Assembly (NCBI RefSeq): GCF_032163395.1
Contig: NZ_CP119968.1
Coordinates: forward strand, 2,320,001-2,384,000
Source of the DNA: Gloeocapsopsis dulcis
GTDB taxonomy: Bacteria; Cyanobacteriota; Cyanobacteriia; Cyanobacteriales; Chroococcidiopsidaceae
DNA length: 64,000 nucleotides
Reading direction: 5' to 3'
The position numbers were made by a program, and so were the translations under genes. Below are positions 44,838-53,506 of the stretch, one piece after another. The notes below the pieces were generated by a model. That model was not told the DNA's origin and made no database searches. It saw only the letters and a list, made by a program, of their open reading frames with translations. Numbering within the stretch: position 1 is the stretch's first letter; every line of letters begins with the position of its first letter.

Positions 44838-45053
44838 ATGCCCAACAAGATCAGGGAACTGAAAAGCTTATTATCTAAAGCAGGGTTTATTTGCCTTTCT
44901 GGTAAGGGTAGCCATACTAAGTGGTTTCATCCACTTCTACCTGGGAAACTAACATTGTCCGGTAAAGATGGAGATGATGCCAAGCCATATCAGGAAAAGG
45001 ATGTCAATGGTGCTATTCAGAAGATAAAGAAAATTGAGGAAGAACAAGAATGA
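44838..45053 (+). CDS. hicA: HicA-like toxin (mRNA interferase)
   Basis: 71 residues of the double-stranded-RNA-binding-like HicA fold: IRELKSLLSKAGFICLSGKG, then SHTKWFHPLLPGKLTLSG, with the catalytic histidine expected in GSHTKW. Its 3' end overlaps the next gene by 4 nt (ATGA), a typical toxin-antitoxin arrangement. HicA toxins degrade mRNA and block translation until bound by HicB. Confidence 0.82.
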   Translation: MPNKIRELKSLLSKAGFICLSGKGSHTKWFHPLLPGKLTLSGKDGDDAKPYQEKDVNGAIQKIKKIEEEQE

Positions 45054-45274
45054 ACTACCATTATTCTGTTGTTATTCAATGGTCGGATGAAGACCAGTGT
45101 TATGTTGTAAGTCTTCCTGAGTGGGGAGAATTCTGTCACACTCACGGAGATACCTACGAAGAAGCGCTACAAAATGCTCAAGAGGTTTTAGAACTTTTAG
45201 TAGAATCGGCGGTTGAAGATGGTGAAACTTTACCAGAACCTTTGACCGTAGGAAAATCATTTCAGGTGGCTTAA
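45050..45274 (+). CDS. hicB: HicB-like antitoxin (short form)
   Basis: 74 residues. It matches the partial RNase-H-fold of HicB: YHYSVVIQWSDEDQCYVVSL, then PEWGEFCHTHGDTYEEALQN and AQEVLELLVESA. The usual C-terminal helix-turn-helix or ribbon-helix-helix DNA-binding domain is absent, so it probably neutralises HicA but may not autoregulate. It overlaps hicA by 4 nt and ends 45 bp before dnaE-N, on the same strand. Confidence 0.82.
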   Translation: MNYHYSVVIQWSDEDQCYVVSLPEWGEFCHTHGDTYEEALQNAQEVLELLVESAVEDGETLPEPLTVGKSFQVA

Positions 45275-45319: not shown

Positions 45320-47953
45320 ATGTCTTTCGTAGGTCTACATATTCATAGTGATTACAGCTTACTCGATGGTGCGAGTCAAATACCAGCACTTATTGATCGA
45401 GCTAATGAGTTAGGAATGAAAGCGATCGCACTTACCGATCACGGTGTTATGTATGGTGCAATCGAACTTATTAAAATTTGCCGCAATAAAAATGTCAAGC
45501 CAATTATTGGCAACGAAATGTATGTCATTAATGGAGATATTGAGGAAAAAAAACGTCGCCCTCGCTATCACCAAGTCGTTTTAGCTAAAAATACAAAAGG
45601 TTACAAAAATCTTGTTAAATTAACGACAATTTCTCACCTCAAAGGCATTCAAGGCAAAGGAATTTTTTCGCGTCCTTGTGTGAATAAAGAATTATTAAAA
45701 GAATACCATGAGGGATTAATCGTTACTAGTGCTTGCTTAGGTGGAGAAGTACCACAAGCAATTCTGCGGGGTAGATTAGATATTGCGCGGAAAGTGGCAC
45801 AAGAATATAAAGATATATTTGGTGATGATTATTATTTAGAAATTCAAGATCACGGTTCGCAAGAAGACCGAATTGTTAATATTGAAATTATTAAAATTGC
45901 ACGAGAATTAGATATTAAATTTATTGCGACAAACGATTCGCATTATATCTCTTGCTTCGACGTAGAAGCACACGATGCTTTATTGTGCATTCAAACAGGA
46001 AAACTCATTGCAGAAGATAAACGGATGCGATACAGCGGGACAGAGTATCTCAAATCTGCGGAAGAGATGAGTCAACTGTTTCGCGATCATTTACCTGATG
46101 ATATGATTCAAGAAGCGATCGCCACCACGGTAGAAATTGCTGATAAAGTTGAACCTTACCATATCATGGGTGAACCGCGAATTCCTAACTATCCGGTTCC
46201 CGCAGGACATACCGCCGATACTTTTCTAGAAGAAGTCGTATGGGAGGGAATGCTAGAACGCTTTAATCGCCGATCGCACAGTGAAATTGACCCAACATAC
46301 AAAGAAAGGCTGGATTATGAATTAAAGATGATCCAGCAAATGGGCTTTTCCACTTATTTTTTAGTTGTTTGGGACTATATTAAATACGCTAGAGATCATC
46401 AAATTCCTGTTGGTCCTGGGCGGGGTTCAGCTGCTGGTTCTTTAGTTGCTTATGCTTTAAGAATTACAAATATTGACCCTGTGCATCATGGATTGTTATT
46501 TGAGCGTTTTTTAAATCCTGAACGCAAATCAATGCCTGATATTGATACAGATTTCTGTATCGAAAGACGCGATGAAGTTATTGATTATGTAACGCGAAAA
46601 TACGGAACAGATCGAGTTGCCCAAATTATTACCTTCAACCGTCTTACTTCCAAAGCAGTTTTAAAAGACGTGGCGCGGGTATTAGATATTCCCTATGGTG
46701 AAGCTGACCGCATGGCAAAGCTCATTCCTGTTGTGCGGGGTAAACCAACCAAGCTTTCAGTGATGATTTCTGATGCAACCCCAGCACCAGAGTTTAAAGA
46801 AAAATATGAAAATGATCCAAAAGTCCGTCACTGGATTGATATGGCAATTCGGATTGAAGGAACCAACAAAACTTTTGGCGTTCATGCTGCGGGAGTTGTC
46901 ATTTCTTCTGAACCTTTAGACGAGATTGTTCCGTTACAAAAGAATAATGATGGTTCAGTTATTACCCAGTATTTTATGGAAGATTTGGAATCACTGGGAT
47001 TGCTAAAAATGGACTTTTTAGGATTAAAAAATTTAACTCTTATTCAAAAAACAATTGAGTTAATTAAACAAAACCAAAATATCGAGATTGACCCTGACTA
47101 TCTGCCCCTGGAAGAAAGGAAAGTCCAAAAAATCTTAGCCAAGGGTGAAGTCAAAAAAATGCCACAAGAAGTGCAAAAAACTTACAAAGTTCTCGAAGAA
47201 GGAGAACTTGAAGGAATTTTCCAACTAGAATCTTCAGGAATGCGGCAAATTGTTCGCGATTTGAAGCCTTCGTGTATTGAAGATATTTCTTCAATTTTGG
47301 CATTGTATCGTCCTGGTCCCCTCGATGCTGGACTCATTCCTAAGTTTATTAACCGCAAACACGGTCGCGAAGAATTAGACTACATCCATCCGCTATTAGA
47401 GCCAATTTTAAATGAAACTTATGCTGTCTTAGTGTATCAAGAGCAAATCATGAAAATGGCTCAAGATTTAGCAGGATATTCTTTAGGGCAAGCAGATCTT
47501 TTACGGCGAGCAATGGGTAAAAAGAAAGTTTCCGAGATGCAAAAACATCGGGAAGCTTTTGTTGATGGCGCGGCTAAAAACGGTGTTAGAAAACAAGTAG
47601 CTGAAGAGTTATTTGACCAAATGGTCAAGTTCGCTGAGTATTGCTTAAGCTATGATACTGAGATACTAACTGTTGAATGTGGGTCAATACCTATTGGCAA
47701 AATAGTTGAAGAAAAAATTGAATGTACAGTTTATAGTATTGATAGTAATGACTATGTATATATACAACCAGTTGCTCAATGGCATAATCGAGGTCAACAA
47801 GAAATTTTTGAATATTGCTTAGAAAATGGCTTAGTTATTCGAGCAACGAAAGAACATAAGTTTATGACTACTAACGGTCAAATGCTACCAATTGATGAGA
47901 TATTTGAAAAAGGACTTGAATTAAAGCAAATACAGTCCACAAATGGACAATAA
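45320..47953 (+). CDS. dnaE: DNA polymerase III alpha subunit, N-terminal part fused to N-intein
   Basis: N-terminal portion of the replicative polymerase. Residues 1-774 are extein: PHP domain ([29 protein letters not shown]), then the polymerase core with [17 protein letters not shown] and catalytic acids in [16 protein letters not shown]. Residue 775 is Cys1 of the intein and 103 intein residues follow to the stop. The extein length of 774 equals that recalled for Synechocystis DnaE-N. The full enzyme forms only after protein trans-splicing with the product of 48727-50067. The stop codon overlaps the homing-endonuclease start by 11 nt. Confidence 0.97.
47642..47950 (+). other. DnaE split intein, N-terminal fragment
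   Basis: 103 residues starting [20 protein letters not shown], closely like the Npu DnaE N-intein (about 102 residues). Block A has catalytic Cys1; block B is [14 protein letters not shown] with the TxxH-type Thr and His. The junction is FAEY/CLSY, the known cyanobacterial DnaE insertion site. It ends naturally at the usual split point with KQIQSTNGQ. Confidence 0.97.
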
Positions 47954-48734
47954 AATGTTTACGAAATATAATCAATTAACCATGCGACAAAAGCAGCAAA
48001 TTATTGATGCTTTTGAGTTTGGAATAGAGTGCCAAGTCATTCCTCAATATATTGGTGTTAGTGGTAGAGCAGTAGCTAGAGTTCTTAGTGAAGCTGGTAT
48101 TAATACTAAACGTAGAAATCGCTATACTTTAAATGAAAACTATTTTGATGAAATTGACTCTCAAGTTAAAGCATATTTATTAGGTTTGATAGCTGCTGAT
48201 GGTTGTGTTACTCAAATAAACTACATTGCTTTTGAATCTATAGATAAGGAACTGACAGAATTACTTAGTATCGAATTGCAATACTCTGGAAAAATTAGAA
48301 TTATTAAGCCTCAAGGTTATGCGCCCCATTATCGAATTAATTTTTCATCCCGAAGCTTAGCTAGTGCTTTACGTAGCTACGGAGTAGTAACCGGAAGAAT
48401 GTTTTCCGGTAGCTATTATTCTCCTAACTCAGAGTATTTAGCTTCATACGTGTTAGGCTACTTTGACGGTGATGGTTGTGCTTATGTAAATAAAGGTAGA
48501 AGTGGCGGACTGATATGTATTGTGGGTTCTTATGAATTTACTTACGAACTCATAAAGTGCTTAGGGATGGGGTCTGTAGAAGAACATAGCTTAAAAAAGG
48601 CTTATTACTGGAGAATTTTTAGTCGTAAAAATATAGAGGCTTTTTATAATTTGGTGTATCAGCAATCACAAGTAGGACTACAACGTAAAAAGAAGAAAAT
48701 TGAAGAAATATTAGGGAGCTACAGACGTGATTAA
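47943..48734 (+). CDS. Free-standing LAGLIDADG homing endonuclease inside the split dnaE intein
   Basis: 263 residues (256 or so if ATG 47955 is used). Residues 14-52 look like a helix-turn-helix ([32 protein letters not shown]). Two LAGLIDADG motifs follow: LLGLIAADG (79-87) and VLGYFDGDG (170-178), 91 residues apart, each with its metal-binding acidic residue (Asp86, Asp177) intact. The C-terminus is basic. The ORF is in the +1 frame relative to dnaE-N and starts within its last codons; its end overlaps dnaE-C by 8 nt. It occupies exactly the place where contiguous inteins hold an endonuclease domain. Activity is inferred. Confidence 0.92.
48713..48718 (+). promoter_or_regulatory. Ribosome-binding site of dnaE-C
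   Basis: AGGGAG, eight bases before the GTG at 48727, inside the endonuclease gene. The dnaE-C frame is closed by TAG at 48712-48714, so initiation must occur here. This argues for independent translation of the C-part rather than read-through. Confidence 0.75.
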
Positions 48735-48834
48735 AATAGTCAGCCGTAAGTCACTAGGAAGCCAACCTGTTTATGATATCGGGGTAGAAAGCGACCATAA
48801 CTTTATATTGGCAAATGGAGTAGTAGCTTCTAAT
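48727..48834 (+). other. DnaE split intein, C-terminal fragment
   Basis: 36 residues, from [20 protein letters not shown] to HNFILANGVVASN, the same length as the Npu DnaE C-intein. The block F histidine and terminal Asn needed for cyclisation are present, and the +1 extein residue is Cys (CFN). Confidence 0.96.
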
Positions 48835-50067
48835 TGTTTTAACAAATCCCATTCGACTGCTTATGGTTATGTTACCTATCAGACAGCATACTTAAAAGCG
48901 AATTACCCTGTAGAATACATGGCAGCACTGCTGACAGCGAACAGTGGTGATACAGATAAGCTCCAAAAATATCTTTCTACGTGTCTGAATATGAATATTC
49001 AGATTGAACCACCAGATATTAATCGCTCTGGGGTAGATTTTACACCAGTAGCAGGCAAAATTTTGTTTGGCTTATCAGCGGTAAGAAATGTTGGACAAGG
49101 AGCGATCGCGTGGATTCTAGCAGCCCGCAACGAGGGAGGTGAATTTCAATCCCTTGCCGATTTGTGCGATCGCGTCGATTTACGTGCAGTGAATCGCCGT
49201 ACCTTAGAAGCCTTAATTCATTGTGGTGCTTTTGATAAACTCGAAGCTAATCGCCAGCAACTGATTCAAGACCTTGAGTTAATTATCGATTGGGCACAAT
49301 CGCGTGCGAAAGATCGTGCTAGTGGTCAAGTTAATTTATTTGATTGGAGTGGGATAGCTAATAATGACAATAATACTAGTTATGAACTAGCACCTAAAGC
49401 TCCCTCTGTTGCAGACTACCCACCTATGGAGAAACTACGTTGGGAAAAAGAATTACTTGGTTTTTACGTTTCCGATCATCCCTTAAAGTCTCTGCGTTCT
49501 CAGACACAAATTTTGTCGCCGGTTAACCTATCACAGTTGGGCGATCAAAAAGATAATACTTTGGTGTGTGCTGTGGTAATGGTAACTAATGTGAAACCAG
49601 TGGTCACTAAAAAAGGCGATCGCATGGCAATTTTACAAATAGAAGATTTAACCGGACAAACCGAAGCGGTCGTGTTTCCGAAAGCTTATGAACGTATTGG
49701 CACATCACTTGTTACTGATGCCAGAATGGTTATCTGGGGTAAAATAGACCGCCGTGACGACCAACTCCAGCTCATTGTAGAAGATGCTGAACCAATTGAG
49801 TCTGTGCAGCTAGTTATGGTGGAACTCGATCCTCAGCAAGCTGCAACCCTTGACTATCAACACCGCTTGAAAACTATTTTACAGGAACAGTTGGGTGAGA
49901 AAGATAAGGCAAAAATTCCTGTACTGGCGCTTGTAAAATCAGGCGATCGCAATCAATTAGTTCGCTTCGGGCGGCAGTTTTGGGTACAAAATAGCCAAAC
50001 AACAGTAGAAATGCTCAAAACTGCCAGCTTTTCTGCTTACACCCAACCCATTGCTAGTCAATTTTAA
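48727..50067 (+). CDS. dnaE: DNA polymerase III alpha subunit, C-terminal part preceded by C-intein
   Basis: 446 residues: 36 of C-intein and 410 of C-extein. The extein resumes with CFNKSHSTAYGYVTYQTAYL, the polymerase region directly following the N-extein, and includes a helix-hairpin-helix (NVGQGAIAWILAARN), the fingers/beta-binding region and an OB fold (AVVMVTNVKPVVTKKGDRMA, EAVVFPKAYERIG). The start is GTG with AGGGAG upstream. It is directly downstream of, and overlapping, the endonuclease gene rather than at a remote locus. Confidence 0.96.
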   Translation: MIKIVSRKSLGSQPVYDIGVESDHNFILANGVVASNCFNKSHSTAYGYVTYQTAYLKANYPVEYMAALLTANSGDTDKLQKYLSTCLNMNIQIEPPDINRSGVDFTPVAGKILFGLSAVRNVGQGAIAWILAARNEGGEFQSLADLCDRVDLRAVNRRTLEALIHCGAFDKLEANRQQLIQDLELIIDWAQSRAKDRASGQVNLFDWSGIANNDNNTSYELAPKAPSVADYPPMEKLRWEKELLGFYVSDHPLKSLRSQTQILSPVNLSQLGDQKDNTLVCAVVMVTNVKPVVTKKGDRMAILQIEDLTGQTEAVVFPKAYERIGTSLVTDARMVIWGKIDRRDDQLQLIVEDAEPIESVQLVMVELDPQQAATLDYQHRLKTILQEQLGEKDKAKIPVLALVKSGDRNQLVRFGRQFWVQNSQTTVEMLKTASFSAYTQPIASQF

Positions 50068-50698: not shown

Positions 50699-53506
50699 AT
50701 GCTAAACCTTGATTTTTCTTTCGCGATTCCTAACACAGTTGTAGATAAAGATGGTCAAGGCACCGGATTTACATCGGTAGAGCCTAACAATAGTGGGGAT
50801 CAATATCAACCAAGTCAAATTGATCTCGACACAACCGCTAAAAAGCTTACTCTAACTGCAACACAGGGTAGTAGTGCTTGGGCAAATAATTCACTGAAAA
50901 ACGCACTACAGCGCGGGATTGATGACACAAAACCGTTCACAATCAGCACGCGGTTACAAGGATCGTCCACTAAATTTACAACTGCCTTTCAACAAGGTGG
51001 CATTTTTTTTGGTTCGGATCAAGATAATTACGTCAAGCTTGTCTTAATTAATACTGGTGGTTCAAATGGCTTGAGGCTTCAGTTTTTCAAAGAAGAAAAT
51101 GGAGTAGGCTCAAGCATTGGAGAAATCACTAATCTTAATTGGGGCAATATTAATACGCTAGATCTGTATCTCACAGGAGATCCTAATTCAAGAACATTTA
51201 AGGCAGCTTACCGGGTTAACTCAAATACGGCACCAGCTACTGTCGTCAATCAGCCTGCCACAATCAAGGCAAATACACCTTTTTTTATTGCCAATTCTGG
51301 TAACACTAGTGCTGGTATCTTAGCTTCTACAAGCAATGCGCCCAATGTCGCGGTTGCGTTTGATCAGTTTGGCATTGCTCAAGAGATCAAAATCAACTTT
51401 CAACCTAATAACGCGAATCTACCATCAGGTTATGTCAAAGACAATGGAGCAGGATTCAATAACGTTCGTGGCTATGGTTGGGTTAGAAGTGGAACAAGCA
51501 CACCTTTAAACATTGGGCAACTTGCCCGCGATCGCAATCTACCTGGAGTAGATCAACGCCTTGATACCTTACTGCATATGCAGTATCCTAATAACCCTGC
51601 AGCAGCTTGGGAAATGGCAGTGCCGAATGGGCTGTATAGCGTGAGCGTCAGCGTTGGTGATGGACCAAACGCCAATGGAGTTTATGACAGCAAGCATACG
51701 ATTCGCGTTGAAGGTGTGACTGCAATTGATAAATTCCAGAGCACTGGGCTGCAAGAATACAAGTTAGAAACCGTCAGAGTTAATGTCAACGATGGTAGGT
51801 TGACAATCGATGCGATCGGTGGAACCAACACCAAAATTAACTTCATCGAAATCTTTAACATCACGCCAGGAAAACACCCTAACGTTACAGGATTTGCAGT
51901 TGATCGCGATGCACAAGGTAGAGCATATCTCAACACATCGATTAATGTGGATGTGGCGCTGGCACGTGCAGGTATAGGTGTTGAGGCTAATAGCTTAAGT
52001 ACATCAACTGTCAAACTATATCGTACAAAAGACGGTCAACAAGTTGCTGGGCTTGTGGGAACGAGTGGTGGTAATGATGTTATTGTCTACCAACCTAATC
52101 AGAATTTAACCCCCAATACTAACTACACCTTCGTTGTTACGAACAACGTCAAAGATGAGTCGGGTACAAGCTTCAACACGAGTAGCTTCACATTTAATAC
52201 GGGAAATGCGATTACCAATCCAACTGACACCCGAGTCAACTTTACAAAACAATCTGTATACCAAGGTGCTCCACTGGCAAGTTTAACTGTTGGTCCTGAT
52301 GGCAAATTATACGCTGCTGGACTCGATGGCAAAATCCGCCGTTGGAACATTAATGCAGGTTCGGGTCAGTTATCTAATTTACAAACTTTTGCTCCAGCGA
52401 AGCTAGATGGTCGAGCAATTGTTGGGATTGCCTTCGACCCCAACAACTCCAATAACCTGTGGATTTCGCATAACGACCCACTTTTCCCTCAACCAGCAAA
52501 AGACTTTACAGGGGCAATCTCCAAGCTGGTTCTCAACTCCAATTCAAACTCTTTCAATGCTAATGTCCAAGACTACGTTGTAGGTTTACCTCGCTCAGCT
52601 AAAGATCACCTCAGCAACAGTCTAGCGTTTGGTGCAGACGGTAAGCTTTACATGACCCAAGGTAGTAACAGTGCATTAGGTGCGCCAGATACGGCTTGGG
52701 CAAATCGACCTGAACGATTACTCACTGCTGCAGTTTTGCAAATTGATCCCTACAGAAATGCACCTACTGGTGGCTTCAATGTCCAAACCGAAAACCACGG
52801 TGGTAAGCCAGGGAACTACAATCCCTTTGCCATTAATGCACCAGTCAAAATTTATGCCACTGGTCTGCGTAATGCATATGACTTAGTTTGGCATAGCAAC
52901 GGTAGCTTATACGTGCCGACAAATGGTAGTGGGGCTAATGGTAATACTCCAGATAACCCGAACACTCGAGTAAATGAAGCATTGCAAGGAGTTGCTGCTC
53001 AAAATGACTACTTATACAGAGTAGTCCAGGGCGGTTACTACGGTCATCCGAATCCCAAACGTGGAGAGTACATTCTCAATGGTGGTAATCCCACAAATGG
53101 CGTCGATCCAGCTGAGGTAGTTAGAGTCGTCGATCCTGAAACCAAGGTTGTCTATGCCGGTTATCCTGTCGGTGTCCAGCCAGATCCCAACTATCGAGGC
53201 TTTGCTTACGATTTCGGACGCAACAAATCACCCAATGGTGTTATCGAATATCAGAGTAATACTTTTGGAGGTGCTTTGAAAAACAAGCTACTCGTCACAC
53301 AGTACAGCGGCGGCAAAGATATTTTGGCACTAGAACCAGGTGCAAACGGCAACGTTCCTAGGGGAAATGTGACTCGCATTACATCTGGGTTAAACGATCC
53401 CTTGGATTTGATAGAAGATACAAGAACAAATGCTGGCAACTTGTATGTTGCAGAACTCATTAGGGGCGGTGTTGCAGGACAGATTTCACTGTTGAAGGTA
53501 AGTTAG
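50699..53506 (+). CDS. Modular extracellular protein: LamG-like, malectin-like, Ig-like and sugar-dehydrogenase propeller
   Basis: 935 residues. Order: LamG-like domain (1-235; LDFSFAIPNTVVDKDGQGTG, QQGGIFFGSDQDNYVKL), a carbohydrate-binding-like jelly roll (236-395; VRGYGWVRSGTSTPLN, YSVSVSVGDGPNANGVYD), an Ig-like domain (395-505) and a beta-propeller related to soluble aldose/PQQ sugar dehydrogenases (515-935; LSNSLAFGADGKLYMTQGSN, YATGLRNAYDLVWHSNGS). No N-terminal signal peptide is present, which fits type I secretion. The role is probably in extracellular polysaccharide binding or oxidation; this is inferred. AAGGAT precedes the ATG. Confidence 0.8.
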   Translation: MLNLDFSFAIPNTVVDKDGQGTGFTSVEPNNSGDQYQPSQIDLDTTAKKLTLTATQGSSAWANNSLKNALQRGIDDTKPFTISTRLQGSSTKFTTAFQQGGIFFGSDQDNYVKLVLINTGGSNGLRLQFFKEENGVGSSIGEITNLNWGNINTLDLYLTGDPNSRTFKAAYRVNSNTAPATVVNQPATIKANTPFFIANSGNTSAGILASTSNAPNVAVAFDQFGIAQEIKINFQPNNANLPSGYVKDNGAGFNNVRGYGWVRSGTSTPLNIGQLARDRNLPGVDQRLDTLLHMQYPNNPAAAWEMAVPNGLYSVSVSVGDGPNANGVYDSKHTIRVEGVTAIDKFQSTGLQEYKLETVRVNVNDGRLTIDAIGGTNTKINFIEIFNITPGKHPNVTGFAVDRDAQGRAYLNTSINVDVALARAGIGVEANSLSTSTVKLYRTKDGQQVAGLVGTSGGNDVIVYQPNQNLTPNTNYTFVVTNNVKDESGTSFNTSSFTFNTGNAITNPTDTRVNFTKQSVYQGAPLASLTVGPDGKLYAAGLDGKIRRWNINAGSGQLSNLQTFAPAKLDGRAIVGIAFDPNNSNNLWISHNDPLFPQPAKDFTGAISKLVLNSNSNSFNANVQDYVVGLPRSAKDHLSNSLAFGADGKLYMTQGSNSALGAPDTAWANRPERLLTAAVLQIDPYRNAPTGGFNVQTENHGGKPGNYNPFAINAPVKIYATGLRNAYDLVWHSNGSLYVPTNGSGANGNTPDNPNTRVNEALQGVAAQNDYLYRVVQGGYYGHPNPKRGEYILNGGNPTNGVDPAEVVRVVDPETKVVYAGYPVGVQPDPNYRGFAYDFGRNKSPNGVIEYQSNTFGGALKNKLLVTQYSGGKDILALEPGANGNVPRGNVTRITSGLNDPLDLIEDTRTNAGNLYVAELIRGGVAGQISLLKVS

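What the first reader, a model, noticed from the sequence alone, without database searches (positions are those of the whole stretch)
45320..50067. Adjacent split dnaE halves with a separate homing endonuclease ORF at the intein split point
Seen: DnaE-N plus N-intein, a double-LAGLIDADG ORF, and C-intein plus DnaE-C lie consecutively in three different frames (11-nt and 8-nt overlaps). Known: in cyanobacteria with split DnaE (for example Synechocystis, Nostoc) the halves are at distant loci and no endonuclease is associated; fractured genes with split inteins and free endonucleases were described mainly from phage and metagenomes. Inference: this is a preserved intermediate in the origin of the DnaE split intein, in which the endonuclease domain became its own cistron before the halves were separated by rearrangement, or a still mobile unit. 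I do not know of a described cyanobacterial case.
Basis: partly seen in the sequence, partly recalled or inferred. Interest (0 to 1): 0.95.

Follow-up and report, generated by a model that had tools for sequence, protein, structure and literature searches.

The report
Mobile split intein in cyanobacterial dnaE
A cyanobacterium's replicative DNA polymerase gene is cut into two protein halves by a 1.2-kb insert carrying a self-joining protein element and its own DNA-cutting enzyme; the insert appears to move between species, which may explain how the well-known split DnaE inteins arose.

Summary
In an otherwise collinear dnaE, a 1193-bp cassette (47642-48834) encodes, as three consecutive cistrons, the canonical DnaE N-intein, a double-LAGLIDADG endonuclease (HEN) and the canonical C-intein. 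Two congeneric genomes have an uninterrupted dnaE at the same locus (98% / 94-95% protein identity): a clean insertion difference, not an assembly error. The triad recurs in 24 distinct cyanobacterial loci (window included), usually with an 8-nt HEN/C-intein overlap and a Shine-Dalgarno-like box before the C-intein start. Among 386 phylum genomes, 104 carry the C-intein but only 5 a near-complete HEN.

Occupied and empty sites alternate between close relatives; cassette and host trees conflict; HEN is under purifying selection (one clade tested). I read it as a mobile split intein: homing turns a one-gene polymerase into a trans-spliced one. Empty, triad, dispersed (with HEN scar) and fused mini-intein states occur within one small Planktothrix-like clade, supporting triad-to-dispersed decay. 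The nearest non-cyanobacterial HENs found lie in group I introns within a few nucleotides of the same dnaE site.

No activity was tested; key older papers could not be read.

The parts
45320..47641 (+). DnaE-N extein (774 aa), ends ...FAEY
47642..47953 (+). N-intein, 103 aa (CLSYDTE...STNGQ) plus stop TAA
47955..48734 (+). LAGLIDADG homing endonuclease cistron from the start shared with homologues (259 aa); an upstream ATG at 47943 gives 263 aa; acidic residues D86, D175 and D177 (263-aa numbering) of the two LAGLIDADG motifs are invariant in the 14-row alignment
48715..48718 (+). GGAG, Shine-Dalgarno-like box inside the last HEN codons, 12 nt before the C-intein start
48727..48734 (+). 8-nt overlap of C-intein start and HEN stop (GTGATTAA)
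48727..48834 (+). C-intein, 36 aa ([11 protein letters not shown]...VVASN)
48835..50067 (+). DnaE-C extein (410 aa), begins CFNKSH
47642..48834 (+). whole cassette, 1193 bp (not a multiple of 3), absent from the same locus in G017 and G415

Best explanation
The insert is a mobile split intein built as three cistrons: N-intein (fused to DnaE-N), a free-standing LAGLIDADG homing endonuclease, and C-intein (fused to DnaE-C). The two DnaE halves are translated separately, the C half from its own start with a Shine-Dalgarno-like box inside the end of the HEN gene, and are joined by protein trans-splicing to the 1184-residue polymerase. The HEN recognises the uninterrupted dnaE site (FAEY/CFNKSH) in intein-less cells and cuts it; repair from an occupied copy inserts the whole cassette, so homing turns a one-gene essential polymerase into a two-polypeptide one. 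Afterwards the cassette decays by HEN breakage, replacement of the HEN by other genes, separation of the halves by rearrangement (the classical split DnaE), or deletion of the HEN to a fused mini-intein. Shown: anatomy, conservation, empty sites, tree conflict, purifying selection on the HEN in one clade, one HEN scar at a dispersed half, one fused copy. Inferred: a shared transcript, trans-splicing in this host, DNA cleavage, homing, and the direction of change in each lineage.
For: Empty site: G017 and G415 (same genus) have one 1193-aa dnaE frame, 98% (N) and 95/94% (C) identical; DNA alignments run through both flanks (41.4-53.4 kb in G017, with small gaps) and lack the cassette. Recurrence: HEN in 20 cyanobacterial loci of genome contigs plus the window, G416, G020 and G317 = 24 distinct triads; the intein halves flank the HEN wherever the contig reaches. 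Overlap of exactly 8 nt in 16 of the 20 loci that show the C-intein; the other 4 have a broken HEN. GGAG, AGGA or GAGG at -12 to -14 in 20 of 20, and GGAG in the 2 more read (a third, G317, was not caught by that pattern). Selection: summed dN/summed dS 0.156 for HEN, 0.176 N-intein, 0.063 DnaE-N extein over 21 pairs of 7 genomes. HEN frame uninterrupted in 18 of 24. Composition: N-intein 31.4% and HEN 34.4% GC against 38.6% and 42.5% in the flanking dnaE parts. Patchiness: at least 20 presence changes on an extein tree of 76 chosen rows. Conflict: cassette data reject {G317, L010, L016}, p-AU 0.0028; extein data reject {G317, Okeania}, p-AU 8.6e-7. Decay states: HEN scar in G286, fused mini-intein in G192. 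One polymerase-domain match in the genome.
Against: No cutting, homing or splicing was tested. No co-conversion tract is visible beside the window's insertion, nor a clear one beside G416 or M. vaginatus HSN003. The cassette data do not reject a clade of the three family-mates (window, Chlorogloea, G416; p-AU 0.50), so descent within the family with many losses is possible. In the Microcoleus clade HEN, N-intein and extein have equal mean dS (0.301, 0.302, 0.305), that is, long vertical inheritance. Extein and HEN identities correlate (Spearman 0.49, 66 pairs of 12 representatives). No cyanobacterial cassette was seen in the phage or plasmid records (HEN matches under 60% identity only), so no vector is known. 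The 76 tree rows and the AU groups were chosen by me after seeing results; with shuffled labels 73 of 1000 give 20 or fewer changes (mean 23.5), that is, presence clusters little on the tree in this biased sample. 5 of 24 HENs are interrupted or altered.
Confidence: 0.8

Rival explanations
1. Ancient vertical triad: the cassette was in an early cyanobacterial ancestor, was inherited by descent, and was lost precisely many times by recombination with empty alleles; the window is a survivor, not a recent arrival (closest to the reader's 'preserved intermediate').
For: Intein-bearing rows are spread over the whole tree; the family clade of three cassettes is not rejected (p-AU 0.50); equal dS in the Microcoleus clade; HEN and extein identities correlate.
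Against: One gain needs 25 losses on the midpoint-rooted 76-row tree against 20 changes in all; each loss must be exact; cassette and extein trees conflict significantly; the window's sister genomes and the three sampled genomes of the next genus are empty.
Confidence: 0.15
2. The HEN has no homing role: a stray endonuclease gene settled between two already adjacent halves and is kept because its 3' end carries the ribosome-binding site of dnaE-C.
For: The start region of the C half lies inside the HEN frame; triads with a broken HEN persist (5 of 24 interrupted or altered).
Against: HEN dN/dS 0.156 over the whole protein in one clade and invariant LAGLIDADG acidic residues in the 14 aligned rows; its nearest outside relatives found sit at the same dnaE codons; adjacent halves without HEN (G247, G067) still have an ATG or GTG start for the C half, so the HEN is not needed for it.
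Confidence: 0.1
3. One continuous large intein made by programmed frameshifting or hidden by sequencing errors.
For: Three overlapping or abutting frames in one direction.
Against: Same architecture in 24 loci; at the N-intein/HEN junction the frame offset takes two different values among homologues, so there is no fixed shift; the C-intein has its own start codon and Shine-Dalgarno-like box.
Confidence: 0.02
4. A group I intron, with the intein-like sequences coincidental.
For: Relatives of the HEN do sit in group I introns in dnaE.
Against: No Rfam match at E up to 1 in window 47500-48950; both intein halves are canonical.
Confidence: 0.01

Closest known systems
Naturally split DnaE intein of cyanobacteria (Ssp, Npu DnaE; PRK09532/PRK07373 halves)
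   Same: Same insertion site, same break point, same N (about 102 aa) and C (36 aa) pieces, matching solved structures.
   Different: [quoted passage not shown] here they are adjacent, with a HEN cistron between and empty alleles in sister species.
Fractured genes with split inteins and free-standing endonucleases (Dassa et al. 2009; only the title seen in a reference list; content recalled)
   Same: Two gene halves with split intein parts around a separate endonuclease gene.
   Different: As recalled, those are phage/metagenomic genes with another (Vsr-like) endonuclease family; here it is a chromosomal polymerase gene, a LAGLIDADG enzyme, and there are empty, scarred and fused states in close relatives.
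Large cis inteins with LAGLIDADG endonuclease (PI-SceI type)
   Same: LAGLIDADG enzyme at the linker position between the splicing halves; PI-SceI matched only weakly (E 0.23).
   Different: There the endonuclease is in frame within one polypeptide; here it is a separate cistron and splicing must be in trans.
Group I intron LAGLIDADG endonucleases in dnaE (L022 Clostridiales, L138 Brevibacillus plasmid, L095 viral contig)
   Same: Homologous HEN (35%, 32% and 28% identity) at practically the same dnaE codons.
   Different: Carried by a self-splicing RNA, inserted 4 nt downstream of the intein point in L022 and L138, not by an intein.

Membership tests
Naturally split DnaE intein | N- and C-intein on separate polypeptides at the FAEY/CFNKSH site | tested here: met
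   (separate reading frames; polypeptides themselves not seen)
Naturally split DnaE intein | Splicing residues (Cys1, TxxH, C-terminal Asn, Cys+1) | tested here: met
   CLSYDTE, ATKEH and VASN/CFN read; alignment to solved DnaE inteins; the roles of these residues are recalled
Naturally split DnaE intein | Trans-splicing activity | not testable with these tools
   inferred from the residues and from being the only polymerase-domain match
Naturally split DnaE intein | Halves at distant loci, no endonuclease (usual, not strictly defining) | tested here: not met
   adjacent with HEN between; 12 of 104 sampled genomes are linked within 8.2 kb
LAGLIDADG homing endonuclease | Two LAGLIDADG motifs with acidic catalytic residues | tested here: met
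   Pfam LAGLIDADG_3, 2 stretches, E 8e-12; D86, D175, D177 invariant; profile matches 2dch (E 1.6e-8) and I-AniI (E 0.003)
LAGLIDADG homing endonuclease | Site-specific cutting of the empty target | not testable with these tools
   inferred
Fractured gene with free-standing endonuclease (Dassa type, recalled) | Gene split with intein halves around a separate endonuclease gene | tested here: met
Fractured gene with free-standing endonuclease (Dassa type, recalled) | Vsr-like endonuclease family | tested here: not met
   only LAGLIDADG families matched in Pfam; the family of the Dassa enzymes is recalled
Large cis intein | Endonuclease in frame with both splicing halves | tested here: not met
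   three frames, two stops
Group I intron | Group I ribozyme core | tested here: not met
   no match at E up to 1

The most novel reading that the evidence does not exclude
The split form itself is the infectious form: a three-cistron split intein homes into intein-less dnaE genes across cyanobacteria, and the classical dispersed split DnaE (Ssp, Npu) is the decayed, fixed end state of repeated invasions rather than of one ancient chromosomal break. Its endonuclease shares a target with group I introns, so one endonuclease lineage has used two unrelated self-splicing vehicles at the same dnaE codons.
Probability: 0.5. Interest if true: 0.88.

Novelty: new variant of a known kind. Interest (0 to 1): 0.78.

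Why it matters
The DnaE split intein is a standard tool for protein trans-splicing (recalled), yet its origin is told as neutral steps to an evolutionarily stable arrangement, or as a break in a mini-intein (passages of PMC3403396 and PMC7765530). A family of adjacent triads, with empty, scarred, dispersed and fused alleles among close relatives, makes that origin testable step by step. It also suggests that a selfish element can convert an essential one-gene enzyme into an obligate two-gene one by homing, and it lists more than 20 matched N/C-intein pairs (whether each is already in a database was not checked) plus a natural fused mini-intein.

Tried and rejected
Sequencing error or frameshifting: rejected. 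Group I intron in the window: rejected. Co-conversion tract: looked for, none clear. HEN remnants in the gaps of G247, G067, G240 and G080: no convincing match (best E-values 0.072, 0.17, 0.026, 0.27); the gap gene of G067 is Uma2, that of G247 has no Pfam match. The output was cut: G009 was not seen, nor parts of G080 and G038. Cassette on phages or plasmids: only HEN relatives under 60% identity. One clade of all dispersed pairs in the intein tree is only weakly rejected (p-AU 0.034). Rfam at gathering threshold found nothing in L022, L138, L056 or L044; laxer filters found the intron in L022 (76.5 bits, gathering 50) and, below the curated score, in L138 (34.9 bits). HEN structure prediction was never obtained. 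One search stopped with a script error after 5 of 7 empty loci. In one search the upstream comparison of G192 is meaningless because another intein lies there.

Rows dropped: L003 (partial N) and L017 (no C half) from the trees; G020 from the cassette tree (partial extein). dN/dS used 7 of the 24 HENs (21 pairs) plus the pair L012-L013 (dN 0.094, dS 1.09); the others are broken, too divergent, or (L003) not entered. Duplicate loci L034, L035, L056, L032, L047 and L036 are counted once; the 24 retained are distinct, the closest two 96% identical over their best stretch.

Not in print: searches gave no report of the triad in cyanobacteria; of the listed papers I read passages of six, the rest as listings only. 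Caspi 2003 and Dassa 2009 are not held; Liu and Yang 2003 (recalled) was not looked up. A prior mention there cannot be excluded.
Full report
What is there. Window 45320-50067 holds dnaE in three cistrons on the + strand: DnaE-N with a 103-aa N-intein (stop at 47951-47953), a double-LAGLIDADG endonuclease (HEN; from 47943 or, more likely, 47955, to 48734), and a GTG-started 36-aa C-intein joined to DnaE-C (48727-50067). The intein pieces are the canonical split DnaE intein pieces. The genome (5.62 Mb, 99.97% complete) gave one match to the DnaE polymerase domain.

It is an insertion. Two genomes of the same genus, G017 and G415, have one dnaE frame of 1193 aa, 98% identical to DnaE-N and 95/94% to DnaE-C. 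At DNA level the flanks are collinear, with small gaps elsewhere, and 47642-48834 (1193 bp) is missing, at TAT/TGT, between FAEY and CFNKSH. Of the 19 genomes of the window's family (G000 plus 18), only G000, G416 and G427 match the intein parts; all three have the HEN, in G427 in pieces at two contig ends.

It recurs. The single scan of genome contigs gave 29 loci, 20 of them cyanobacterial at 58-73% HEN identity. With the window, G416, G020 and G317 there are 24 distinct triads after removing duplicates. In L017 the contig ends before the C half; in L019 a 2.5-kb insertion splits the HEN. The C-intein start overlaps the HEN stop by exactly 8 nt in 16 of the 20 loci that show the C-intein; the other four have a broken HEN. 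A GGAG, AGGA or GAGG lies 12-14 nt before the C-intein start in 20 of 20, and GGAG also in G416 and G020 (G317 was not caught by the pattern used). These rows are related and the box lies in HEN codons, so they are not independent. The candidate HEN starts lie at +2, 0, +3, -10, -16/-22 or -24 relative to the N-intein stop, in two different frame offsets, which speaks against programmed frameshifting. The HEN frame is uninterrupted in 18 of 24; L015 has an early stop, L019 an insertion with transposase-like frames, L021 a frameshift, L014 and G317 altered or shortened ends, and L020 runs off its contig.

Selection and composition. In seven genomes of the Microcoleus clade (21 pairs) summed dN over summed dS is 0.156 for the HEN, 0.176 for the N-intein and 0.063 for the DnaE-N extein; mean dS is equal (0.301, 0.302, 0.305), so there the cassette has been inherited with the host gene while the HEN stayed under purifying selection. 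In the window the N-intein (31.4% GC) and HEN (34.4%) are poorer in GC than DnaE-N (38.6%) and DnaE-C (42.5%).

Distribution. In 386 genomes drawn evenly from the phylum, a HEN match was found in 6: five near-complete (window included) and one remnant. The C-intein was found in 104 of the same 386 by my count of the listed rows (lower-scoring rows were not printed). The N half was located in 103 of these 104 (G138 gave none). N then C on the same strand within 8.2 kb, match to match: 12 (5 with HEN; 7 without: G247 0.84 kb, G067 0.87 kb, G240 1.7 kb, G080 2.2 kb, G009 6.2 kb, G038 and G329 8.2 kb). One (G192) is fused. Three (G132, G213, G278) have C about 13 kb upstream of N. The other 88 are further apart, on other contigs, or (G138) lack a found N half.

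States in one small clade. The rows L009 (named Planktothrix sp. UBA8402), G192, G286 and G293 form one clade (SH-aLRT 100; the last three share a genus code) and show four states: intact triad; one 1596-aa frame in which N-intein and C-intein are directly fused without HEN, a cis mini-intein; halves about 1.6 Mb apart with a HEN C-terminal scar (33 residues, 85% identical to the L009 HEN) directly before the C-intein; and no intein. The scar shows that at least this dispersed pair came from a triad.

Trees. On an extein tree of 76 rows chosen by me, presence changes at least 20 times; one gain would need 25 losses (midpoint root); shuffled labels give 23.5 changes on average and 73 of 1000 reach 20 or fewer. 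Close pairs that differ: window against G017/G415, G416 against G421/G425, Microcoleus vaginatus HSN003 against G033, Chlorogloea against G045. In the intein tree (47 rows) triads and dispersed pairs are mixed; one clade of all dispersed pairs is rejected only weakly (p-AU 0.034). Cassette data (intein + HEN, 21 triads) reject the host grouping {G317, L010, L016} (p-AU 0.0028) and that of these with the window's family (0.00045); extein data reject {G317, Okeania} (8.6e-7) and {Chlorogloea, Chamaesiphon} (0.0004). The groups were named after seeing the trees. Against transfer: a clade of window, G416 and Chlorogloea cassettes is not rejected (p-AU 0.50), and extein and HEN identities correlate (Spearman 0.49, 66 pairs of 12 representatives). 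Overall: transfer between lineages plus long vertical stretches.

Origin of the endonuclease. Outside cyanobacteria the closest HENs found are L022 (uncultured Clostridiales, 35%) and one on a Brevibacillus halotolerans plasmid (L138, 32%). Both lie in dnaE inside a group I intron (RF00028: 76.5 bits, E 2.5e-19; 34.9 bits, E 7e-7, the latter below the curated cut-off). With splice points placed by me at U/G, the usual group I rule (recalled), joining the flanks restores ...FASYAFNKSH... and ...FGEYAFNKSH..., with the introns at GCN-T/TC, 4 nt downstream of the cyanobacterial intein point. A viral contig, L095, also has a group I intron (55.9 bits) with a HEN of this family where the DnaE match breaks at the same place (N match to 772, C match from 35); other viral dnaE-like genes carry related HENs at other sites. 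The simplest inference is one endonuclease lineage specific for this dnaE sequence that has used both an intron and a split intein as vehicle; which came first is open. The scans were pattern-based or capped, so closer relatives may exist. Matches in phage records are 26-29% identical in the rows listed (20 of 135 records).

How it most likely works. Trans-splicing of the two halves makes DnaE; the HEN cuts empty dnaE and repair copies the cassette. Because each half has its own start, the element works as a split intein from the moment it lands. Later the HEN decays, other genes take its place, halves separate, or a deletion fuses them. Steps shown and inferred are marked in the explanation section.

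Compared with what is known. It is a naturally split DnaE intein by its splicing parts. As an arrangement it resembles the 'fractured genes' with split inteins and free endonucleases (recalled; only the title was seen), with a different endonuclease family. [quoted passage not shown] PMC9403480 reports the split intein in all Thermosynechococcus strains compared except one basal MAG (passage), which fits patchiness. None of the passages read describes the triad. Caspi 2003 and Dassa 2009 could not be read, so priority is open. I call it a new variant of a known kind.

Noticed in passing
window 44838-45274: A HicA toxin / HicB-like antitoxin pair lies directly upstream of dnaE on the same strand (Pfam).
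   Followed up: no
window 50699-53506: 935-aa protein downstream of dnaE with a glucose/sorbosone dehydrogenase domain and a bacterial Ig-like domain.
   Followed up: no
G227:C24:20434-23748 and G376:C1:3675437-3677972: Extra partial N-intein-like copies lie near dnaE-N (three further fragments in G227, one in G376); possible decay or duplication of the N-intein.
   Followed up: no
L011, L014, L015, L021, L139, L147: DnaE-N matches are interrupted at other sites (around residues 704-706 or 727), and in L139 and L147 a second C-intein-like stretch lies there: further inteins in the same gene.
   Followed up: partly
L019:6496-9003: The Microcoleus vaginatus HEN is interrupted by about 2.5 kb with transposase-like frames (function read by eye, no family search), while the C-intein start remains intact.
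   Followed up: partly
L061, L120, L122: Viral dnaE-like genes interrupted at other positions by related LAGLIDADG endonucleases.
   Followed up: partly
G424:C40:164505-169304: A 1609-aa dnaE frame in the window's family has an insert near DnaE-N residue 370, possibly another intein.
   Followed up: no
G138: C half found but no N half at E 0.001 in a genome listed as 99% complete.
   Followed up: no
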